Source: Balneolaceae bacterium (GTDB lineage: Bacteria > Bacteroidota > Rhodothermia > Balneolales > Balneolaceae). Taken from it: 64,000 bases of DNA. The position numbers and the translations under genes are program-made. This document shows, one piece after another, positions 31,501 to 43,998 of this stretch. The stretch lies in assembly GCA_009711805.1 (NCBI GenBank), contig VEMX01000052.1, positions 1-64,000 on the forward strand, read 5' to 3'. Each line of letters begins with the position of its first letter. Position 1 is the first letter of the stretch. The notes under the pieces were generated by a model. The model did no database searches. It was not told the DNA's origin and saw nothing but the letters and a program-made list of their open reading frames with translations.

Positions 31501-31560
31501 TACCGCGTACGGGATTTCACCATAGGTATGCCTTCGGCAGAACCCGTGTTACCTGCTGTG
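31501..31560 (-). pseudogene. tRNA-Glu 3'-end remnant with T-loop insert
   Basis: The stretch TACCGCGTACGGGATTT is identical to the 3' end of the tRNA-Glu gene at 31600. The next bases should be GAACCCGTG, but 21 extra bases (ending GGTATGCCTTCGGCA) come first, after which GAACCCGTGTTACC resumes. The D arm and anticodon arm are missing. The insert is the short palindrome also seen at 31838-31859 and 32459-32480, with the left arm here changed to CCATAGG. Confidence 0.8.
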
Positions 31561-31599
31561 TTGTACTTATAAATTACATACAATAGATATGCGAAATAG

Positions 31600-31672
31600 T
31601 ACCGCGTACGGGATTTGAACCCGTGCTACCGCCGTGAAAGGGCGGCGTCCTGGACCCCTAGACGAACGCGGC
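31600..31672 (-). tRNA. tRNA-Glu(TTC)
   Basis: A 73-nt cloverleaf on the minus strand. The acceptor GCCGCGT pairs with ACGCGGT, the anticodon arm CCGCC-CTTTCAC-GGCGG has TTC, and the T arm is ACGGG-TTCAAAT-CCCGT. No CCA is encoded. An identical copy lies at 31919-31991. Confidence 0.95.
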
Positions 31673-31702
31673 ATTTCAGTAAAAAATGGAACTCAATAAA
31701 AA

Positions 31703-31723
31703 GAGACATCGCGAAGATGTCTC
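31703..31723 (-). terminator. Terminator-like hairpin between tRNA-His and tRNA-Glu
   Basis: GAGACATC (31703-31710) pairs with GATGTCTC (31716-31723) around GCGAA. On the minus strand it is followed by TTTTTATT. It could separate or process the His and Glu parts of the array. Confidence 0.6.
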
Positions 31724-31735
31724 AAAAAAAAGAAG

Positions 31736-31810
31736 GGAGCCCGATGGGAATTGAACCCACGGCCTCCAGGGCCACAACCTGGCGCTCTAACCGACTGAGC
31801 TACGAGCTCC
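31736..31810 (-). tRNA. tRNA-His(GTG)
   Basis: A cloverleaf on the minus strand. An extra 5' G pairs with C73 (the tRNA-His hallmark), and the acceptor is GAGCTCG/CGGGCTC. The anticodon arm CCAGG-TTGTGGC-CCTGG has GTG, and the T arm is CGTGGGTTCAATTCCCAT(C). Confidence 0.95.
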
Positions 31811-31819
31811 ATCTTTAAA

Positions 31820-31880
31820 GTACCGCGAACAGGATTTCACCGAAGGTATGCCTTCGGCAGAACCCGTGTTACCTGTTGTA
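31820..31880 (-). pseudogene. tRNA-Glu 3'-end remnant with T-loop insert, second copy
   Basis: TACCGCGAACAGGATTT is followed by an inserted CCGAAGG-TATG-CCTTCGG hairpin (31840-31857). GAACCCGTGTTACC then resumes the T arm. Only the 3' acceptor and T arm of tRNA-Glu remain. The flank (ACCTGTTGTAG... to the next tRNA-Glu) is homologous to that of 31501-31600, so remnant plus tRNA-Glu was duplicated as one unit. Confidence 0.8.
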
Positions 31881-31918
31881 GTTGTGATATACTATACAAC
31901 AGATATTACGGAATTTAG

Positions 31919-31991
31919 TACCGCGTACGGGATTTGAACCCGTGCTACCGCCGTGAAAGGGCGGCGTCCTGGACCCCTAGACGAACGCGGC
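31919..31991 (-). tRNA. tRNA-Glu(TTC), second copy
   Basis: Identical over 73 nt to the copy at 31600-31672, with anticodon TTC. It is followed downstream on the minus strand by its own broken 3'-end copy at 31820-31880. Confidence 0.95.
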
Positions 31992-32032
31992 AAAATATCA
32001 TTCAGTATGTCAAAAACAAGGTACCTAAATGG

Positions 32033-32103
32033 AGGCGACAGGCGGATTCGAACCGCCGTACGAGGTTTTGCAGACCTCTGCCTAGCCACTCGGCCATGTC
32101 GCC
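32033..32103 (-). tRNA. tRNA-Cys(GCA)
   Basis: A 71-nt cloverleaf on the minus strand. The acceptor is GGCGACA/TGTCGCC, the anticodon arm GAGGT-CTGCAAA-ACCTC has GCA, and the T arm is GGCGG-TTCGAAT-CCGCC. Confidence 0.95.
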
Positions 32104-32120
32104 TTAAAAGCATTAAGTTG

Positions 32121-32194
32121 TACGCCCGACAGGACTCGAACCTGTAACCTATTGCTTAGAAGGCAATTGCTCTATCCAGTTGAGCTACGGGCGC
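32121..32194 (-). tRNA. tRNA-Arg(TCT)
   Basis: A 74-nt cloverleaf on the minus strand. The acceptor is GCGCCCG/CGGGCGT, the D arm is GCTC-AACTGGATA-GAGC, the anticodon arm ATTGC-CTTCTAA-GCAAT has TCT, and the T arm is ACAGG-TTCGAGT-CCTGT. Confidence 0.95.
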
Positions 32195-32219
32195 ATGCTA
32201 AAAAGCAGCACTTTTTTTT

Positions 32220-32330
32220 ACGCCCGTCTACAATGCTTAACCGAAAATGGATCTCTTATACCGGAGAACCTGTAACTATGTACTTAGAAAGCAGTTGCTT
32301 CCCGAGTATTCGGGATTGAGCTACGGGCGC
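32220..32330 (-). pseudogene. Broken tRNA-Arg copy with D-loop and T-loop inserts
   Basis: It keeps both acceptor ends (GCGCCCG at 32330, CGGGCGT near 32220) and a TTTCTAA anticodon loop, but the anticodon stem no longer pairs. The D loop has gained the small hairpin CCCGA-GTAT-TCGGG (32301-32314). The T loop has gained about 35 bases between ACAGG-TT and the acceptor. It lies 5' of the intact tRNA-Arg. It could not fold as a normal tRNA. Confidence 0.8.
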
Positions 32331-32346
32331 TCAACTAACAATATAT

Positions 32347-32383
32347 CAAAAAATCGGGCTCCTGATATGCAGGAACCCCGGGT
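32347..32383 (-). terminator. Terminator-like hairpin downstream of the tRNA-Pro segment
   Basis: On the minus strand CGGGGTTCCTG pairs with CAGGAGCCCG around CATAT (one small internal loop), followed by ATTTTTTGAT. Confidence 0.6.
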
Positions 32384-32440
32384 AATTTTATACTGCCGAG
32401 GTTAATTACAGTTCACTGCAAATAACCTTTCGACCTTTTG

Positions 32441-32495
32441 TCGGGGAGACAAGATTTTCCCGAAGGGGATGCCTTCGGCAGAACTTGCGTTCTTT
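32441..32495 (-). pseudogene. tRNA-Pro 3'-end remnant with T-loop insert
   Basis: TCGGGGAGACAAGATTT copies the 3' end of tRNA-Pro (one change). An inserted CCGAAGG-GGATG-CCTTCGG hairpin (32460-32478) follows, then GAACTTGCG resumes the T arm before the sequence decays into a T-run. The insertion site (between GATTT and GAAC) is the same T-loop position as in the two tRNA-Glu remnants. Confidence 0.8.
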
Positions 32496-32521
32496 TTTTT
32501 AGAATCTAATCTTCCCATCAT

Positions 32522-32596
32522 GTCGGGGAGACAGGATTTGAACCTGCGACCCTTCGCTCCCAAAGCGAATGCGCTACCGGACTGCGCCACTCCCCG
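32522..32596 (-). tRNA. tRNA-Pro(TGG)
   Basis: A 75-nt cloverleaf on the minus strand. The acceptor is CGGGGAG/CTCCCCG, the D arm is GCGC-AGTCCGGTA-GCGC, the anticodon arm TTCGC-TTTGGGA-GCGAA has TGG, and the T arm is GCAGG-TTCAAAT-CCTGT. It is the first tRNA of the array in transcription order. Confidence 0.95.
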
Positions 32597-38062: not shown

Positions 38063-40807
38063 GTGTTGTTCGTTTATGTAAGAGTATCGATGGGTACTCT
38101 GGGCTTCATTGATCTTATTACCAACTATAGGTATGCACATCAGGAATATTCGCATATGATCTCGGCAGGAGGCGAAACCGCGCAGGGGGCGGTAACTACC
38201 AGCTATGAGGTGCGTGCGTGGACACATAATAGCACCACCAATAATTACATAGTAACAACGATTGAGGATGAAGCAGGCCACGAGGTTGAAACATGGACGG
38301 ATGGCTGGGGGCGGAAAGTGCGTACGGTAAGCGACCCGAATGGGAAAGCTGCCGAAACGATCTTTGAATACGATGAGCTGGGGAATCTGACAAAAGTGAT
38401 TTCCCCCAATAACTCGGTGACTACCTACGCTTATACCAAAAAAGGAGAATTAACCAGCACGACAAGCCCCGATGCCGGGACCGTGAACTACAAGTATGAT
38501 AGGGCTGGTAACCTGCGATTCAGTCAGGACGCAAAGCAGGCGGGTAATAGCGAAGTCACCTTTTACACCTATGATGAGCTGGGACGGGTATTGAAGCAAG
38601 GGGTAGCCACTGCAACCTTTTCCAATTTAGATGGTAATAGCAGCTATAGTTTTGAAACCAACAGCAGCAACTGGAAAGGGGTGTATGCCTATGATGTGAA
38701 ACCCTCGACCAGCCAAGCCCCCTGGAACCAGTTTTCTTCATTTATCAGCGGAACAAGTGTAACCCATACCACCGGGAGCCTTGTGGCCCGTGCCTGGCGG
38801 GTTGTTGACGGAGTAAGCTCCGAGATTGGAAGCAATCCCTGGCAGGTAGAGATCTACAGCTACAACAGTGAGGGGCAGCTTGAAGATAAGTGGATCCGAA
38901 CCGGCAACAAGTCGGGGTGGGACACCGACCTCAGCTACAGTTATAACAGGCAGGGCGAGATTATTACCCGCGGGGTTACGGTGGGCAGCCAATCTCTATA
39001 CCAGTTTTATGAGTATAACCAACGGGGACTGCTAAGTGCGGTCTATGCCCATACCACCAACAGCAAACCCTTGGCGGCGGAGGTAAGCTACAGCTATACC
39101 GCAACCGGGGCTATTGACCAGATCGATTATAAAGGCAGTAAAGACGTTGACTACGCCTATACCATCCGCGACTGGGTTGAAGAGATTAATTCCATCGGAA
39201 GTCCGAACGGTAATTTTGCAGCTTATTATGATTATACCGATAATGGCAATGTGAGCAAAGCCCAGTTCCATAACCCCCAAAACCAGATCACTGGCCACGA
39301 CCACTACCACCAGTCGTTCACCTACGATGGGCTGAACCGGCTCACCAGCGCCGACTACGGCACCGGATCATCCGGCAGTTCCCCCTACTTTGACCTGACC
39401 GGGCTTACCTACGATGACGCCGGAAACCTAACAGGACTTAAACGCGATGATGACACGGGCAGCCTAATCGATAACCTAAGCTATTCCTATGGTAGCAACT
39501 CCAACCGCCTGCAAAGCATATCCGACGGGGTAAGCGCCACCAGTGAAAGCTGGGATGCCGAAGACGCCAGTTTTGGCTACGATGCCAATGGCAACCTGAC
39601 CTCCCAGAGCGGGAAGATCAGTAATATATCCTATGATTTTCGCAACCTTCCGGTGGAGTTTAGCATGAGCGGAGGAGCGGACGTAGTGGCCAACTACAAT
39701 GCCGATGGCCAGCGGATACTCAAGGAGCTGCAAGGCGGGGGCTGGCAATTTTATGTGATGGACGGCCAGCAGACCCTTGCCGTTATAGACAACAATGGAT
39801 TCAGTCATTTTAACCTGGTGGGCAACGGCACCTTTGGCCGGTGGGAATCCGGTGGAGACCGCCGCTATTATATTACCGATCACCTGGGGTCGACACGGGC
39901 CGTGGTCGATGACGCAGGTACTGTTCTTGAAACATTTGACTACTACCCCTTCGGGCTGCTGATGCCGGGGCGAACCTCAACGAGCGGGAATACGATGGAG
40001 AAGTTTACCGGGCATGAGTTGGATGAGGAGGTGGGACTAAACCTGTTTTATGCGGGAGCAAGGTATTTGGACCCGGCACTTGGCAGGTGGCATAGCGTGG
40101 ATCCGCTTGCAGCCAAATACCCAGGATGGAGTCCGTACAATTACGTATTGAATAACCCGGTGAATGCTTTTGACCCGGATGGGCGGGATGTGTGGTTTGT
40201 ACATGGTACTTTTTCTTCTCCTCGAACCTGGACAAGAGATGGAATAAATTATGATGTTCGATGGGCTTCTGCTTTAAATGACAATAATTATCACCGGTTC
40301 GATTGGCGATGGAACAGTAAGCTTAATACGATCCCATCAAGAAACCGGGCAGCAAAACGTTTGGCCGATGATATCGAAATTGCCTACATGTCTAATCCTG
40401 ATATGTTGGTACAGCTGGTAGCCCATTCCCACGGCGGCAATGTGGCTATTGAAGCCGCTAATATTCTGCGAAAAAGAGGTATTAGCGTAGACCGGTTGGT
40501 GTTGCTTGGAACACCTTCCAGAGACCGATATAGGTTAGAGGAAGGAGCAGTTAAAGAAGGAGGGCTGTATAATTTTTCCGATGACAATGACGCAATACAA
40601 AAACTTGGAGGTACTGACTTTTTGTTGGGGCTGTTTGGCGAAAAAGATACCGGGCTGGCTGGACGTAGCCGGTCTGAAGAAGAGGGAGCCATTGAAATTA
40701 GGGCAATCAGTAATAGAGGAGGGAAAGAAAGCCATACGTTGATCCATACAACCCAGGAGTTGATAGACTGGATAGATGAACAGTTAAATGAAGAAGGGAA
40801 ACAATAA
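38063..40807 (+). CDS. Rhs tip protein with a C-terminal alpha/beta-hydrolase toxin domain (5'-truncated)
   Basis: The frame opens mid-Rhs at GTG 38063 with no signal peptide. About 650 residues of YD-type repeats follow (FEYDELGNLTKVISPNNSVTTYAY, YKYDRAGNL, FYTYDELGRVLKQG). The Rhs-associated core then has YYITDHLGSTRAVVDDAG, FDYYPFGLLMPGR, FTGHELDEE, YAGARYLDPALGRWHSVDPLA and NPVNAFDPDGRD (Asp704), the usual auto-cleavage border. The remaining 205 residues form an alpha/beta hydrolase: WFVHGTFSSP (oxyanion), VAHSHGGNVAIEAA with nucleophile Ser789, a late Asp-rich loop and SHTLIH with the His. It is a candidate lipase-type effector. The immunity candidate starts 2 bases after the stop. Confidence 0.85.
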   Translation: MLFVYVRVSMGTLGFIDLITNYRYAHQEYSHMISAGGETAQGAVTTSYEVRAWTHNSTTNNYIVTTIEDEAGHEVETWTDGWGRKVRTVSDPNGKAAETIFEYDELGNLTKVISPNNSVTTYAYTKKGELTSTTSPDAGTVNYKYDRAGNLRFSQDAKQAGNSEVTFYTYDELGRVLKQGVATATFSNLDGNSSYSFETNSSNWKGVYAYDVKPSTSQAPWNQFSSFISGTSVTHTTGSLVARAWRVVDGVSSEIGSNPWQVEIYSYNSEGQLEDKWIRTGNKSGWDTDLSYSYNRQGEIITRGVTVGSQSLYQFYEYNQRGLLSAVYAHTTNSKPLAAEVSYSYTATGAIDQIDYKGSKDVDYAYTIRDWVEEINSIGSPNGNFAAYYDYTDNGNVSKAQFHNPQNQITGHDHYHQSFTYDGLNRLTSADYGTGSSGSSPYFDLTGLTYDDAGNLTGLKRDDDTGSLIDNLSYSYGSNSNRLQSISDGVSATSESWDAEDASFGYDANGNLTSQSGKISNISYDFRNLPVEFSMSGGADVVANYNADGQRILKELQGGGWQFYVMDGQQTLAVIDNNGFSHFNLVGNGTFGRWESGGDRRYYITDHLGSTRAVVDDAGTVLETFDYYPFGLLMPGRTSTSGNTMEKFTGHELDEEVGLNLFYAGARYLDPALGRWHSVDPLAAKYPGWSPYNYVLNNPVNAFDPDGRDVWFVHGTFSSPRTWTRDGINYDVRWASALNDNNYHRFDWRWNSKLNTIPSRNRAAKRLADDIEIAYMSNPDMLVQLVAHSHGGNVAIEAANILRKRGISVDRLVLLGTPSRDRYRLEEGAVKEGGLYNFSDDNDAIQKLGGTDFLLGLFGEKDTGLAGRSRSEEEGAIEIRAISNRGGKESHTLIHTTQELIDWIDEQLNEEGKQ

Positions 40808-40809
40808 CT

Positions 40810-41280
40810 ATGGAAAAGTTGAAACTGGTCGCATTAGTCGTTGTAGGTTTAGTTGTAGTCTATTTTTTGGCAAGAACTATTATTGAACCCTCTTTTGAAA
40901 AATTGGACAGGAATGCCGTCGATATCCCAGATTATGTTTATTCTGATCCATCTCAGAAGGGCATATCTGAGGCGTACCAAAACAGTGGTATTGATTTTAG
41001 GGAGATATATCCAACCGATAATCGCTTTCTACTTTATTATTATGATGACAATTATTGGATATTTTGGACTGGGGTTGTTGATTTGGATGATGGCTTAAAG
41101 TTTATATATACACCCAAGTACTCAAGGTTGATTGTGACAGACCGAAATACAAACGAAATTATTTCGAGTAAGCTCTTCCTGCGAGATGTGACTAATGCCA
41201 AGATCATTGATGGTTATGTCTATTTTGTGTATGCAAGCTTTGCCAATTACAAACTTGGTAGGTATAAGCTAAACGAATAA
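40810..41280 (+). CDS. Candidate immunity protein for the Rhs-hydrolase (membrane-anchored)
   Basis: The 156-residue product has one N-terminal membrane helix (LVALVVVGLVVVYFLARTII). An acidic, aromatic-rich beta domain follows (YYYDDNYWIFWTGVVDLDDGLKF, SRLIVTDRNTNEIIS, GYVYFVYASFANYKLGRYKL). No family is recognised. It starts 2 bases after the Rhs toxin stop. A membrane-tethered extracytoplasmic domain fits protection against a phospholipase-type toxin acting at the membrane. The role is inferred from position. Confidence 0.6.
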   Translation: MEKLKLVALVVVGLVVVYFLARTIIEPSFEKLDRNAVDIPDYVYSDPSQKGISEAYQNSGIDFREIYPTDNRFLLYYYDDNYWIFWTGVVDLDDGLKFIYTPKYSRLIVTDRNTNEIISSKLFLRDVTNAKIIDGYVYFVYASFANYKLGRYKLNE

Positions 41281-41321
41281 ACAGAAAACCAAACCTACTT
41301 TCTTGCAGTGTTTGTCTTGGT

Positions 41322-41531
41322 TTATCGAATGGTCTTAAACTTAGCGGCTCTAATGAGGTTGTCGAGGGTGCAGAAAATATGCTCTCTGTCGGGTTCAGGG
41401 AGTTTTTGCAAGTCAAGAATGCGTTTGGCGGTGGAGGGTTCCAACGGCTCATCGTGAAGCCCGGCCAGCCAGTCCAGGGAAACCCCACCTAGCAGCAAGC
41501 ATGTAATTAAAAACTGGTTCAAGTGTCTCAC
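41322..41531 (-). pseudogene. XRE-type regulator C-terminal relic
   Basis: The minus-strand frame reads GVSLDWLAGLHDEPLE, then TAKRILDLQKLPEPDREHIFCTLDNLIRAAKFKTI. This is the end of the helix-turn-helix plus the C-terminal helix of Bacteroidota XRE regulators ('GVSLDyLvG...RiqeieeLp..dk..if.liD.lIr..K'). The helix-turn-helix itself is lost. It is antisense to, and wedged between, the two rhs modules. The rest of the 366-base gap (41281-41646) shows no other gene. Confidence 0.6.
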
Positions 41532-41646
41532 TTGGACCTTTTTGTTTAGGAGGAAGAAAGCTGCTTCTGTACGCTCGCTTTAAAGACAAAAGCCTGCAGG
41601 AAATCTTTTACTGTGGCCTGCTGGCTGGGGCAACACCATTGCCACA

Positions 41647-43998
41647 GTGACGGAGATGAACAGCGGGGGCGATCTGATCACCAAGTTTGAATACGACGAG
41701 CTGGGACAGCTCACCAAAACAACCGACCCGAAGGGACTGCAAACCACCTATACCTACGACAAGCGGGGACAACTCACCCAGAAAAACCTGCCCGACCAGG
41801 ACTATCCTAACAAGTACCGGTATAGCAAAGATGGGCTGCTGCGGTTCCACCGTACCCCCAACCAGGATGCCTCTGGTGATCCATACAACTACATTACCTA
41901 TGACGAGCTGGGCCGCCCGACCGAGGAAGGCTCCTATAATAGTTCGTCCTATTTTGATAACAGCGCCAAGATCAATGACCTGGACTGGCCCACCAGCGGG
42001 AATACCGCCAAGGTGAAATACACCTATGATAATGCCACCTACAGCGGAAGCATCAGTTTTAGCGTGGATAATGCGGAAGGCAAGGTAGCCCGGCGGCGCT
42101 CGCGGATACCCGGCACCAGCAACTGGAATACCACCTGGTACTCTTATAACAACCAGGGACTGGTATCGGCGATGGTGCAGGACCTGCACGGGCTGGGCGA
42201 GAAACTCATTGAATACACTTACGACCGGGTCGGAAGAGTTACACAAATTGATTATCAAAACAGGAGCGGAGTTTCTGATACGTTTTTCCAGAAATACTCC
42301 TATGATGAGCTGGGCCGACTGGCAAAAGTAGAAAGCAGTACCGACAACTCAGACTGGATCACTGATGCCCAATACACCTACACAGCCGACGGACAGCAGG
42401 ATGTATATACCCTGAGCGAAGCCGGAAAGTCGATGGACTATAGCTATGGCTCGCAAGGCTGGCTAAAGACCATCAATACCCCGGGTAGTCTTGGAAGTGA
42501 TGAATTTGCCTTAGAGCTGGGGTATAATCATGACGGGAATATCTCTTCCTCATCCTGGAACCAATCGATCAATTCGGGGTTAATAACCTTTGATTATACC
42601 TATGATAACGCCAAACGTTTGACTCAGGCCGATAATACCGCAAGTAACAACTACTGGACCAGTAATTACCAGTATGATAAAAACGGGAATATCAGTTACC
42701 TTGGCAGAGAAGATGACAGTGGTAATGAAAACCCTGATGATTATTTAACCATTGATCTTGAAACTACCACCAACCGGATCGAGGATATAGGCATCAACTT
42801 CCAAACCTACTATATGGATTACGACGCCAGCGGCAATATGACCCGCAATGATGTAAATGGACTGAGTGCAGCCAGCTACGACTGGCGCAACCTCCCGGAA
42901 AGCCTTAGCGCAAACGGGAGCACGGTCACCTACGCCTACGACGGCGACGGCCAGCGAGTGAGCAAGACCGTAGGAGGTACCACCACCTACTACGTACGTG
43001 GAGCCGGCGGAGAGACGATAGCGGTATACACCGGCACCTCCCACACCTTCACCAACATCTTAGCCGGTGGGGAGATTATCGGAAACTATGATGGAAGTAC
43101 CCGTCGCTACTATCTGAAGGATCATTTAGGTTCTGTACGCACCACAATTGATGATAATGGCTATGTAGATGGGTATGATGATTACTATCCGTTTGGGAAG
43201 GTCATGCCGGGACGTTCGACTAACTCAGCCAATCCGAATGATAATTATAAGTTTACCGGGCATGAGTTAGATACCGAAGCAGGAGTTACCCTTAGCTATG
43301 CCGGTGCCCGTTACCTGGATTCTGAAATTGGAAGGTGGTTATCAGTAGATCCCCTGGCAGAAAATTTTCCGGGATGGAGCCCCTATAATTATGGGATGAA
43401 TAATCCGGTTAATATGTGGGATCCGGATGGGAAGGCTGCTACTAATTGTTGTCTGTTTGCTCCAATGGGCTTAGGACTGACAAGTACAACAGCTAAAGCA
43501 ATGGGAGGAGATAAAGATGCACAAGCATCATTAACGGCTGTTCATAAAGCAAATGCAGCTGTTGGGTTGGCTGTAGTTCCAGGGCCAGAAGATGTAGCTC
43601 TCGGGGCATTAATGGTTTCAAAAGCAGGACAAGCTCTGGCTAGAATTGGAGCAAGAGCTACTGGACTTATAAAAGGGTTGTTTAAAGGTGGAGATGAGGC
43701 CATAAATGTTGCCGATGATGCAGTAAAAGCAGTAAACAATCCTTACCTGAAGAAGTCAGCTTCTGAGCTTAGTAAATCAAGAAGCTCTTTTGAGAAACTA
43801 ATTAAAGAACACACCCAAAAATTAGCTGATTTTAAAGAAAATCCTGATAAATTTGATAATAGAGGTATATTAAAGAATGCTTCTCATGGAAATAGAAAGA
43901 AAATTATCGAAGGGAGGATAAAAGCTTTACAGAAGCAGATTCAAAAGCAAAAAAATGAATTGGATAAGGTGAATGATGCTATTAATAATCAAAACTGA
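41647..43998 (+). CDS. Rhs tip protein with an uncharacterised C-terminal toxin candidate (5'-truncated)
   Basis: The frame opens at GTG 41647. In-frame sequence just upstream (NTIATVTEMNSGG) is already Rhs-like, so the 5' part is missing. YD repeats (FEYDELGQLTKTTDPKGLQTTYTYDKRG) run to about residue 500. The core then has YYLKDHLGSVRTTIDDNG, YYPFGKVMPGR, FTGHELDTEAG, YAGARYLDSEIGRWLSVDPLA and NPVNMWDPDGK (Asp592). The C-terminal 190 residues have a hydrophobic pretoxin-like stretch (ALGALMVSKAGQALARIG). A charged helical domain follows (SFEKLIKEHTQKLADFKENPDKFDNRGILKNASHGNRKKIIEGRIKALQKQIQKQ). I do not know its activity. The immunity candidate starts 5 bases downstream. Confidence 0.85.
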   Translation: MTEMNSGGDLITKFEYDELGQLTKTTDPKGLQTTYTYDKRGQLTQKNLPDQDYPNKYRYSKDGLLRFHRTPNQDASGDPYNYITYDELGRPTEEGSYNSSSYFDNSAKINDLDWPTSGNTAKVKYTYDNATYSGSISFSVDNAEGKVARRRSRIPGTSNWNTTWYSYNNQGLVSAMVQDLHGLGEKLIEYTYDRVGRVTQIDYQNRSGVSDTFFQKYSYDELGRLAKVESSTDNSDWITDAQYTYTADGQQDVYTLSEAGKSMDYSYGSQGWLKTINTPGSLGSDEFALELGYNHDGNISSSSWNQSINSGLITFDYTYDNAKRLTQADNTASNNYWTSNYQYDKNGNISYLGREDDSGNENPDDYLTIDLETTTNRIEDIGINFQTYYMDYDASGNMTRNDVNGLSAASYDWRNLPESLSANGSTVTYAYDGDGQRVSKTVGGTTTYYVRGAGGETIAVYTGTSHTFTNILAGGEIIGNYDGSTRRYYLKDHLGSVRTTIDDNGYVDGYDDYYPFGKVMPGRSTNSANPNDNYKFTGHELDTEAGVTLSYAGARYLDSEIGRWLSVDPLAENFPGWSPYNYGMNNPVNMWDPDGKAATNCCLFAPMGLGLTSTTAKAMGGDKDAQASLTAVHKANAAVGLAVVPGPEDVALGALMVSKAGQALARIGARATGLIKGLFKGGDEAINVADDAVKAVNNPYLKKSASELSKSRSSFEKLIKEHTQKLADFKENPDKFDNRGILKNASHGNRKKIIEGRIKALQKQIQKQKNELDKVNDAINNQN

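What the first reader, a model, noticed from the sequence alone, without database searches (positions are those of the whole stretch)
31501..32495. Three broken tRNA copies carry the same palindromic insert at the same T-loop position
Two tRNA-Glu remnants and one tRNA-Pro remnant keep only the 3' acceptor and T arm. Each is split at the same site, between GATTT and GAAC on the plus strand, by about 22 bases forming CCGAAGG-(4-5 nt)-CCTTCGG. Each of these three lies just downstream (in transcription order) of the intact gene of the same type. A tRNA-Arg copy has other hairpin inserts in the D and T loops. This looks like a palindromic element that targets, or travels with, tRNA 3' ends. It resembles Rickettsia palindromic elements or tiny tRNA-integrating elements whose attachment core is the T arm. 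I know of no description in this lineage.
Basis: partly seen in the sequence, partly recalled or inferred. Interest (0 to 1): 0.78.

Follow-up and report, generated by a model that had tools for sequence, protein, structure and literature searches.

The report
Scars of tiny tRNA-homing nuclease elements
The three broken tRNA ends look like gene-less leftovers of a widespread, apparently undescribed family of about 300-base mobile elements that insert beside tRNA genes, carry only an ~80-residue GIY-YIG nuclease gene, and leave a tRNA fragment capped by small hairpins.

Summary
Covariation supports the two mini-hairpins (85/91 and 82/91 free positions paired; shuffles 31 and 40), not the 7-bp palindrome. 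The same capped tRNA tails, singly or in regular tandem arrays, occur across Bacteroidota and related phyla. In the same genome and many others a small UPF0213/SLX1-like GIY-YIG nuclease gene lies between intact tRNA and capped tail. Of 50 loci chosen only by that nuclease, 40 have a same-strand tRNA within 250 bp and none an opposite-strand one. Nuclease lineages cluster by tRNA isotype (15 label changes; shuffles 32). Empty sites in seven congeners show a precise 300-bp insertion with an 18-bp duplication running from T-loop position 57 to the tRNA 3' end. The published motif of the phage GIY-YIG enzyme SegB, GTTCSAWTY, is the one these caps interrupt. Best reading: tRNA-homing GIY-YIG elements, with ORF-less derivatives in the window. 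Cleavage and mobility are not shown, and the role of the hairpins (immunity or mobilisation site) is inferred.

The parts
31599..31672 (-). intact tRNA-Glu(TTC), parent of the first tail
   Evidence: ARAGORN, Rfam
31518..31598 (-). first ORF-less unit behind tRNA-Glu; cap (double mini-hairpin) at 31518-31539
   Evidence: sequence; BLAST copy of the second unit, 81% identity
31500..31517 (-). duplicated tRNA-Glu 3' part (position 57 to end)
   Evidence: sequence; breakpoint analysis
31918..31991 (-). intact tRNA-Glu(TTC), parent of the second tail
31838..31917 (-). second ORF-less unit; cap at 31838-31859; upstream hairpin CTGTTGTA...TACAACAG
   Evidence: empty site in relative G007
31820..31837 (-). 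duplicated tRNA-Glu 3' part of the second unit
32522..32596 (-). intact tRNA-Pro(TGG)
32458..32521 (-). third ORF-less unit behind tRNA-Pro; cap at 32458-32480
32441..32457 (-). duplicated tRNA-Pro 3' part
32120..32194 (-). intact tRNA-Arg(TCT)
32220..32330 (-). tRNA-Arg copy upstream of the intact gene, D-loop hairpin 32300-32315 and degenerate T-loop insert: probable relic of the 5'-type element
   Evidence: compare 5'-type units in L302 and L326

Best explanation
The remnants are non-autonomous (ORF-less) members of a family of very small mobile elements that home to tRNA genes. Proposed mechanism: the nuclease breaks a tRNA gene at the centre of the T-loop palindrome (GTTC|GAATC). Repair puts the element directly downstream and duplicates the tRNA 3' part (position 57 to the end, sometimes with the terminator), so the tRNA stays intact and the element is followed by a 3' tail. 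The cap interrupts the T-loop motif in that tail, so that the site re-created next to the native flank is no longer a target (immunity); it may also be a branched DNA end on which an SLX1-like nuclease acts. Repeated insertion or unequal crossing-over gives tandem arrays; loss of the ORF gives short units such as those in the window. SHOWN: element anatomy, hairpin covariation, tRNA adjacency, clustering by isotype, and precise insertion with an 18-bp duplication at one ORF-bearing site. INFERRED: cleavage, mobility, role of the cap, and that the window units descend from ORF-bearing ones.
For: GIY-YIG ORF between tRNA and capped tail at two other tRNA genes of the same genome (Asn, G000:C21; Ser, G000:C40) and in many other genomes. 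PF01541 E 4e-13 to 6e-18, catalytic Tyr, Tyr, Arg, Glu invariant. Reverse test with the nuclease profile alone: 40 of 50 loci have a same-strand tRNA within 250 bp, 0 an opposite-strand one; 34 of 37 tails found there carry a T-loop hairpin of at least 4 bp. Nuclease tree clusters by tRNA isotype, 15 changes versus 31.9 shuffled, 0/200. Empty site in seven congeners, 300-bp insertion with 18-bp duplication in G027. The SegB motif RAWTSGAAC (PMC13096335) is the T-loop sequence that the cap splits.
Against: No activity or mobility was measured. The window has no GIY-YIG ORF, so its membership rests on shared cap, site and tail. 78 of the nuclease residues carry no recognisable DNA-binding extension, which homing endonucleases normally have. 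Caps also occur outside tRNA, where no nuclease was generally seen. An immunity role does not by itself require a covarying double hairpin. The downstream-type loci (9 of 50) need a second arrangement. The SegB motif has S at position 57, while the Glu genes here have A.
Confidence: 0.68

Rival explanations
1. The cap is not an immunity mark but the active cis site: a self-folding branched DNA (T-stem plus two mini-hairpins, a three-way junction) that the SLX1-like nuclease nicks to mobilise or expand the unit. The rest of the model is unchanged.
For: Structure is kept while sequence changes (L290, L294, L309, L311). Best solved relatives after UPF0213 are SLX1 structure-specific endonucleases. 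Loops are purine-N-A type. Caps are also inserted away from tRNA.
Against: DNA folding favours the long hairpin for some tails when their loops happen to be complementary. Some tails have a single hairpin or hairpins elsewhere.
Confidence: 0.35
2. Integration by a tyrosine recombinase acting in trans, with the tRNA 3' part as attachment core; the GIY-YIG gene is a cassette passenger.
For: A core from the T loop to the tRNA 3' end, and a restored tRNA, are typical of such elements (own knowledge).
Against: The recurring gene is the GIY-YIG gene, and its lineages follow the tRNA isotype. No integrase was seen within the fetched flanks by eye, but no systematic integrase search was made. The duplication sometimes extends into the terminator.
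Confidence: 0.1
3. RNA-level role: tail and nuclease form a toxin-antitoxin-like or processing pair, the tail RNA being a tRNA decoy that binds or titrates the nuclease.
For: Tails keep the tRNA acceptor 3' strand and a T-arm-like fold; the ORF is on the tRNA strand in all 50 sampled loci with a nearby tRNA.
Against: Terminators often lie between tRNA and tail. Purine-N-A triloops are a DNA-type stable loop. GIY-YIG enzymes are known DNA nucleases. ORF-less arrays are common.
Confidence: 0.12
4. Neutral decay: tRNA tails duplicated by slippage or unequal crossing-over, as in E. coli rtT repeats, with palindromes made by template switching.
For: Inverted copies of the T arm precede some tails (e.g. 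AACCAGC-GGCTGGTT); array units are clearly tandem duplicates.
Against: The same 22-bp consensus recurs across phyla; the copy starts exactly at position 57 in 19 of 37 tails found through the nuclease alone; a nuclease gene is present and follows the isotype.
Confidence: 0.08

Closest known systems
Phage T4/T6 SegB, free-standing GIY-YIG homing endonuclease (PMC13096335; PMC2988022)
   Same: GIY-YIG enzyme, encoded among tRNA genes, cuts within tRNA genes, prefers RAWTSGAAC (reverse complement GTTCSAWTY, the T loop), promotes tandem amplification of its locus.
   Different: Phage gene in tRNA clusters, with no isotype preference reported; the authors describe no hairpin-capped partial tRNA copies. 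Here: chromosomal, 80-95 aa catalytic domain only, isotype-clustered, ~300-bp element with capped tail. No PHROG match.
UPF0213 (YhbQ-like) and SLX1 GIY-YIG nucleases (PDB 1zg2, 1ywl, 4xlg)
   Same: Minimal stand-alone GIY-YIG domain, best profile matches in the PDB.
   Different: Described as host repair or structure-specific nucleases; the superfamily survey PMC1564403 reports no tRNA-linked mobile units.
E. coli rtT repeats behind tyrT (own knowledge)
   Same: Tandem repeats behind a tRNA gene, each with a copy of the tRNA 3' end.
   Different: No T-loop hairpin cap and no nuclease gene known there; one locus in one lineage.
Double-hairpin elements of organelle DNA (PMC4618339, PMC5910586 and others)
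   Same: Small mobile-looking units of two tandem hairpins.
   Different: Organellar; not tied to tRNA T loops or to a GIY-YIG unit. Titles and abstracts only were seen.
Rickettsia palindromic elements (own knowledge)
   Same: Palindromic inserts in pre-existing genes.
   Different: Longer, mostly within protein genes; no nuclease or tRNA tail known.

Membership tests
GIY-YIG nuclease superfamily | PF01541 domain with catalytic Tyr, Tyr, Arg, Glu | tested here: met
   for the nuclease of ORF-bearing units; the window units have none
Free-standing homing element | nuclease gene inserted at a defined site that is empty in relatives | tested here: met
   one site, seven empty congeners, 300-bp insertion
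Free-standing homing element | enzyme cleaves the empty allele and is spread by recombination | not testable with these tools
   needs biochemistry
SegB-type tRNA-associated homing endonuclease | gene located next to tRNA genes | tested here: met
   40 of 50 within 250 bp on the same strand, 0 opposite
SegB-type tRNA-associated homing endonuclease | sequence membership in phage SegB families | tested here: not met
   no PHROG match for two representatives; no close IMG/VR relative of one query
REP elements mobilised by Y1/RAYT transposase | Y1_Tnp present where the repeat is | tested here: not met
   cap-rich G007 and G114, G091, G006 have no PF01797 match
Tyrosine-recombinase tRNA integrative element | integrase gene in the element | tested here: inconclusive
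   300-bp elements encode only the GIY-YIG ORF; trans-acting integrases were not searched
Known RNA family | Rfam match to the tails | tested here: not met
   only intact tRNAs (and one capped full-length tRNA copy, L068) match
Rickettsia palindromic element | RPE consensus, in-frame insertion in protein genes | not tested
   no RPE sequence was compared

The most novel reading that the evidence does not exclude
These are among the smallest autonomous mobile DNA elements known (about 282 bp plus an 18-bp duplication): one ~80-aa structure-specific GIY-YIG nuclease and a self-folding DNA junction at the element end suffice to spread between tRNA genes of one isotype, keeping the tRNA intact, across several bacterial phyla.
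Probability: 0.35. Interest if true: 0.95.

Novelty: new variant of a known kind. Interest (0 to 1): 0.82.

Why it matters
If right, many small orphan GIY-YIG genes of Bacteroidota are not DNA-repair genes but selfish tRNA-homing elements, and hairpin-bearing tRNA fragments are their scars. It would extend SegB-like tRNA-gene targeting from phages to chromosomes, offer a very small model of mobility by a single-domain nuclease, and explain regular repeat arrays behind tRNA genes. It can be tested directly with one small enzyme and short DNA substrates.

Tried and rejected
(1) The 7-bp palindrome as the conserved structure: rejected by covariation. (2) Y1/RAYT transposase as driver: absent from cap-rich genomes. 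(3) A known RNA family: none. (4) Integron-like cassettes in the Marinoscillum array (L051): spacers are duplicated DNA without a consistent gene. (5) A trailer RNA read only with the tRNA: terminators often intervene. (6) Complementarity between the two hairpin loops: not above shuffles. (7) Inverted repeats flanking caps outside tRNA: weak excess, 5.8 versus 5.4 pairs of 12, undecided. (10) Early idea that loop and stem hairpins arise only by template switching: kept as a rival.

Full report
WHAT IS IN THE WINDOW. The three remnants are real. On the minus strand each reads GTTC-[insert]-AAAT(C)...tRNA 3' end and follows the intact tRNA of the same type (Glu, Glu, Pro). The inserts are TGCCGAAGGCA+TACCTATGGTG, TGCCGAAGGCA+TACCTTCGGTG and TGCCGAAGGCA+TCCCCTTCGGGA: two mini-hairpins in tandem. 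The insertion point is between tRNA positions 56 and 57, the centre of the TTC|GAA palindrome of the T loop. For the second Glu unit, relative G007 shows the empty site: there tRNA-Glu is followed after a few bases by tRNA-His.

THE CAP IS A CONSERVED STRUCTURE. A search that left loops and second stem positions free found capped T loops in the same genome behind tRNA-Pro(GGG) (five tandem units of about 110 bp), tRNA-Ser(GCT) and tRNA-Asn, and in 10 of 92 genomes of the family. A scan of one genome per species for 84,980 species gave 95 stretches, mostly Ignavibacteria, Melioribacteraceae, Cytophagales, Bacteroidales, Balneolaceae, Calditrichota, LCP-89 and Neomarinimicrobiota; a few scattered others are probably chance. 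Among 91 distinct 22-nt inserts the free stem positions pair in 85 (hairpin A; shuffled 31) and 82 (hairpin B; shuffled 40), with G-C, C-G and T-A types. The pairs of the long palindrome are not supported (2-21: 14 of 91). Related sequences make shuffles too easy to beat, but three or four pair types at one position in many genomera are hard to get otherwise. Loops are purine-N-A in hairpin A (63 of 78) and TNY in hairpin B (59 of 78), so each DNA strand carries one purine-N-A triloop, a kind known to be very stable in DNA (stability from own knowledge). The consensus TNCCRNAGGNATNCCTNYGGNA is palindromic as a whole.

THE CAP IS AN INSERTION. In a repeat family of one Balneola genus more than 100 copies in five genomes run uninterrupted across the junction, while two copies in G027 are split there by a 22-bp cap without target duplication. 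The exact consensus occurs in 21 of 89 family genomes and 48 of 392 phylum genomes; the reversed control pattern hit two genomes once each.

ARRAYS. One genome held as a single 3.86-Mb contig (G368) has 11 units of about 112 bp behind tRNA-Thr, 9-10 of 92 bp behind tRNA-Cys and 6 of 113 bp behind tRNA-Glu. Units often contain a terminator.

THE MISSING GENE. Between tRNA and capped tail at tRNA-Asn of the window's own genome (G000:C21), and at tRNA-Ser in G007 and G027, lies an ORF of 80-100 codons. It is a GIY-YIG nuclease (PF01541) with invariant catalytic residues, closest by profile to UPF0213 and then SLX1. Many other capped-tail loci held such an ORF. The reverse test used only the nuclease profile: 261 of 392 phylum genomes have matches, often several in tandem 306-416 bp apart. 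Of 50 fetched loci (30 best, 20 lower-ranked picked from the list without looking at their surroundings), 31 have a same-strand tRNA within 250 bp upstream, 9 within 250 bp downstream, none on the opposite strand. Most of the other ten are array members, contig ends, or have a tail without a tRNA. About 45 tRNA genes in 4 Mb would give well under one such case by chance (my estimate). Tails in these loci: 34 of 37 carry a hairpin of at least 4 bp at the T loop, 36 of 37 lack an intact GTTCSAWTY, and the copy starts exactly at position 57 in 19. The motif count is inflated by genes with A at position 57.

SITE SPECIFICITY. In a tree of 80 nuclease domains the labels Ser, Met, Asn, Pro, Cys, Glu and Ala cluster: 15 changes against 31.9 in shuffles, 0 of 200. 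The alignment is short and many forks are open; near-copies inflate clustering, but the Asn, Cys and Met groups span several genomes. I relabelled two rows of L130 from Gln to Glu, because the copies there are tRNA-Glu.

INSERTION OF A FULL ELEMENT. Seven congeners have tRNA-Ser(TGA) followed directly by the flank. G027 has 300 bp more: the ATG of the nuclease immediately after the tRNA, the ORF, GGGGTTC, the cap, then a second GAATCCCTCACTCTCCGC and the same flank. So the insert is 282 bp plus an 18-bp duplication from position 57 to the tRNA end. In G007 the duplication also takes in the terminator. Over 101 tails in 74 loci (many chosen by the cap, so partly built in) 80 copies start at position 57, and most end at or within a few bases of the tRNA end.

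TWO ORIENTATIONS. In about a fifth of the loci the tRNA lies downstream of the nuclease. Two that I read show the order 5' tRNA copy - nuclease - intact tRNA, with hairpins in the anticodon loop (L302, double hairpin) or the D loop (L326). The window's tRNA-Arg copy, upstream of intact tRNA-Arg with a D-loop hairpin, looks like a relic of this type.

LINK TO KNOWN BIOLOGY. SegB of T-even phages is a GIY-YIG homing endonuclease encoded among tRNA genes. It cuts within tRNA genes and prefers, without strictly needing, RAWTSGAAC, which is GTTCSAWTY on the tRNA strand (PMC13096335). That is the motif which the caps split. This makes an immunity role natural: the duplicated tail next to the native flank would otherwise be a fresh target. 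It does not explain why the interrupting DNA should be a covarying double hairpin; the kinship to SLX1 suggests that the hairpins may be a structural substrate. I cannot decide between these and give both.

WHAT IS NOT SHOWN. No activity, no mobility, no transcription. The window itself has no GIY-YIG ORF. Caps outside tRNA are not explained. The literature search covered open papers only, so absence there is weak evidence of novelty.

Noticed in passing
G114:C165:53611 and 83654 (L045, L046): A second copy of the tRNA-Asn tail unit with its terminator lies 30 kb away without a tRNA, starting inside the acceptor end; it may mark an island end or a secondary insertion.
   Followed up: no
L051 1107-4400 (Marinoscillum furvescens): Seven or more capped tails behind a tRNA-Leu-like gene that ARAGORN did not call; all later spacers carry a second double hairpin (GTTCGCAGAACTCCTGCGGA) that the first spacer lacks.
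   Followed up: partly
L058, L063 (Ignavibacteriales): Caps at the tip of GTAGGGGCGTTC...GAACGCCCCTAC palindromes with no tRNA nearby, a REP-like setting.
   Followed up: no
L282 905-1130 (G063): A different, diverged GIY-YIG gene near a member of the Balneola repeat family; whether REP-like repeats of Bacteroidota go with such genes was not tested.
   Followed up: no
L037, L290, L292, L061: The nuclease reading frame begins at or within a few bases of the tRNA 3' end, leaving no room for an ordinary ribosome-binding site.
   Followed up: no
window 38063-43998: Two long RHS/YD-repeat-like ORFs (914 and 783 aa) in tandem with different C-terminal ends; judged by eye only.
   Followed up: no
L173, L185 (IMG/VR contigs): Viral-collection contigs with capped tRNA-like sequences; whether these are phage or host DNA was not checked.
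   Followed up: no
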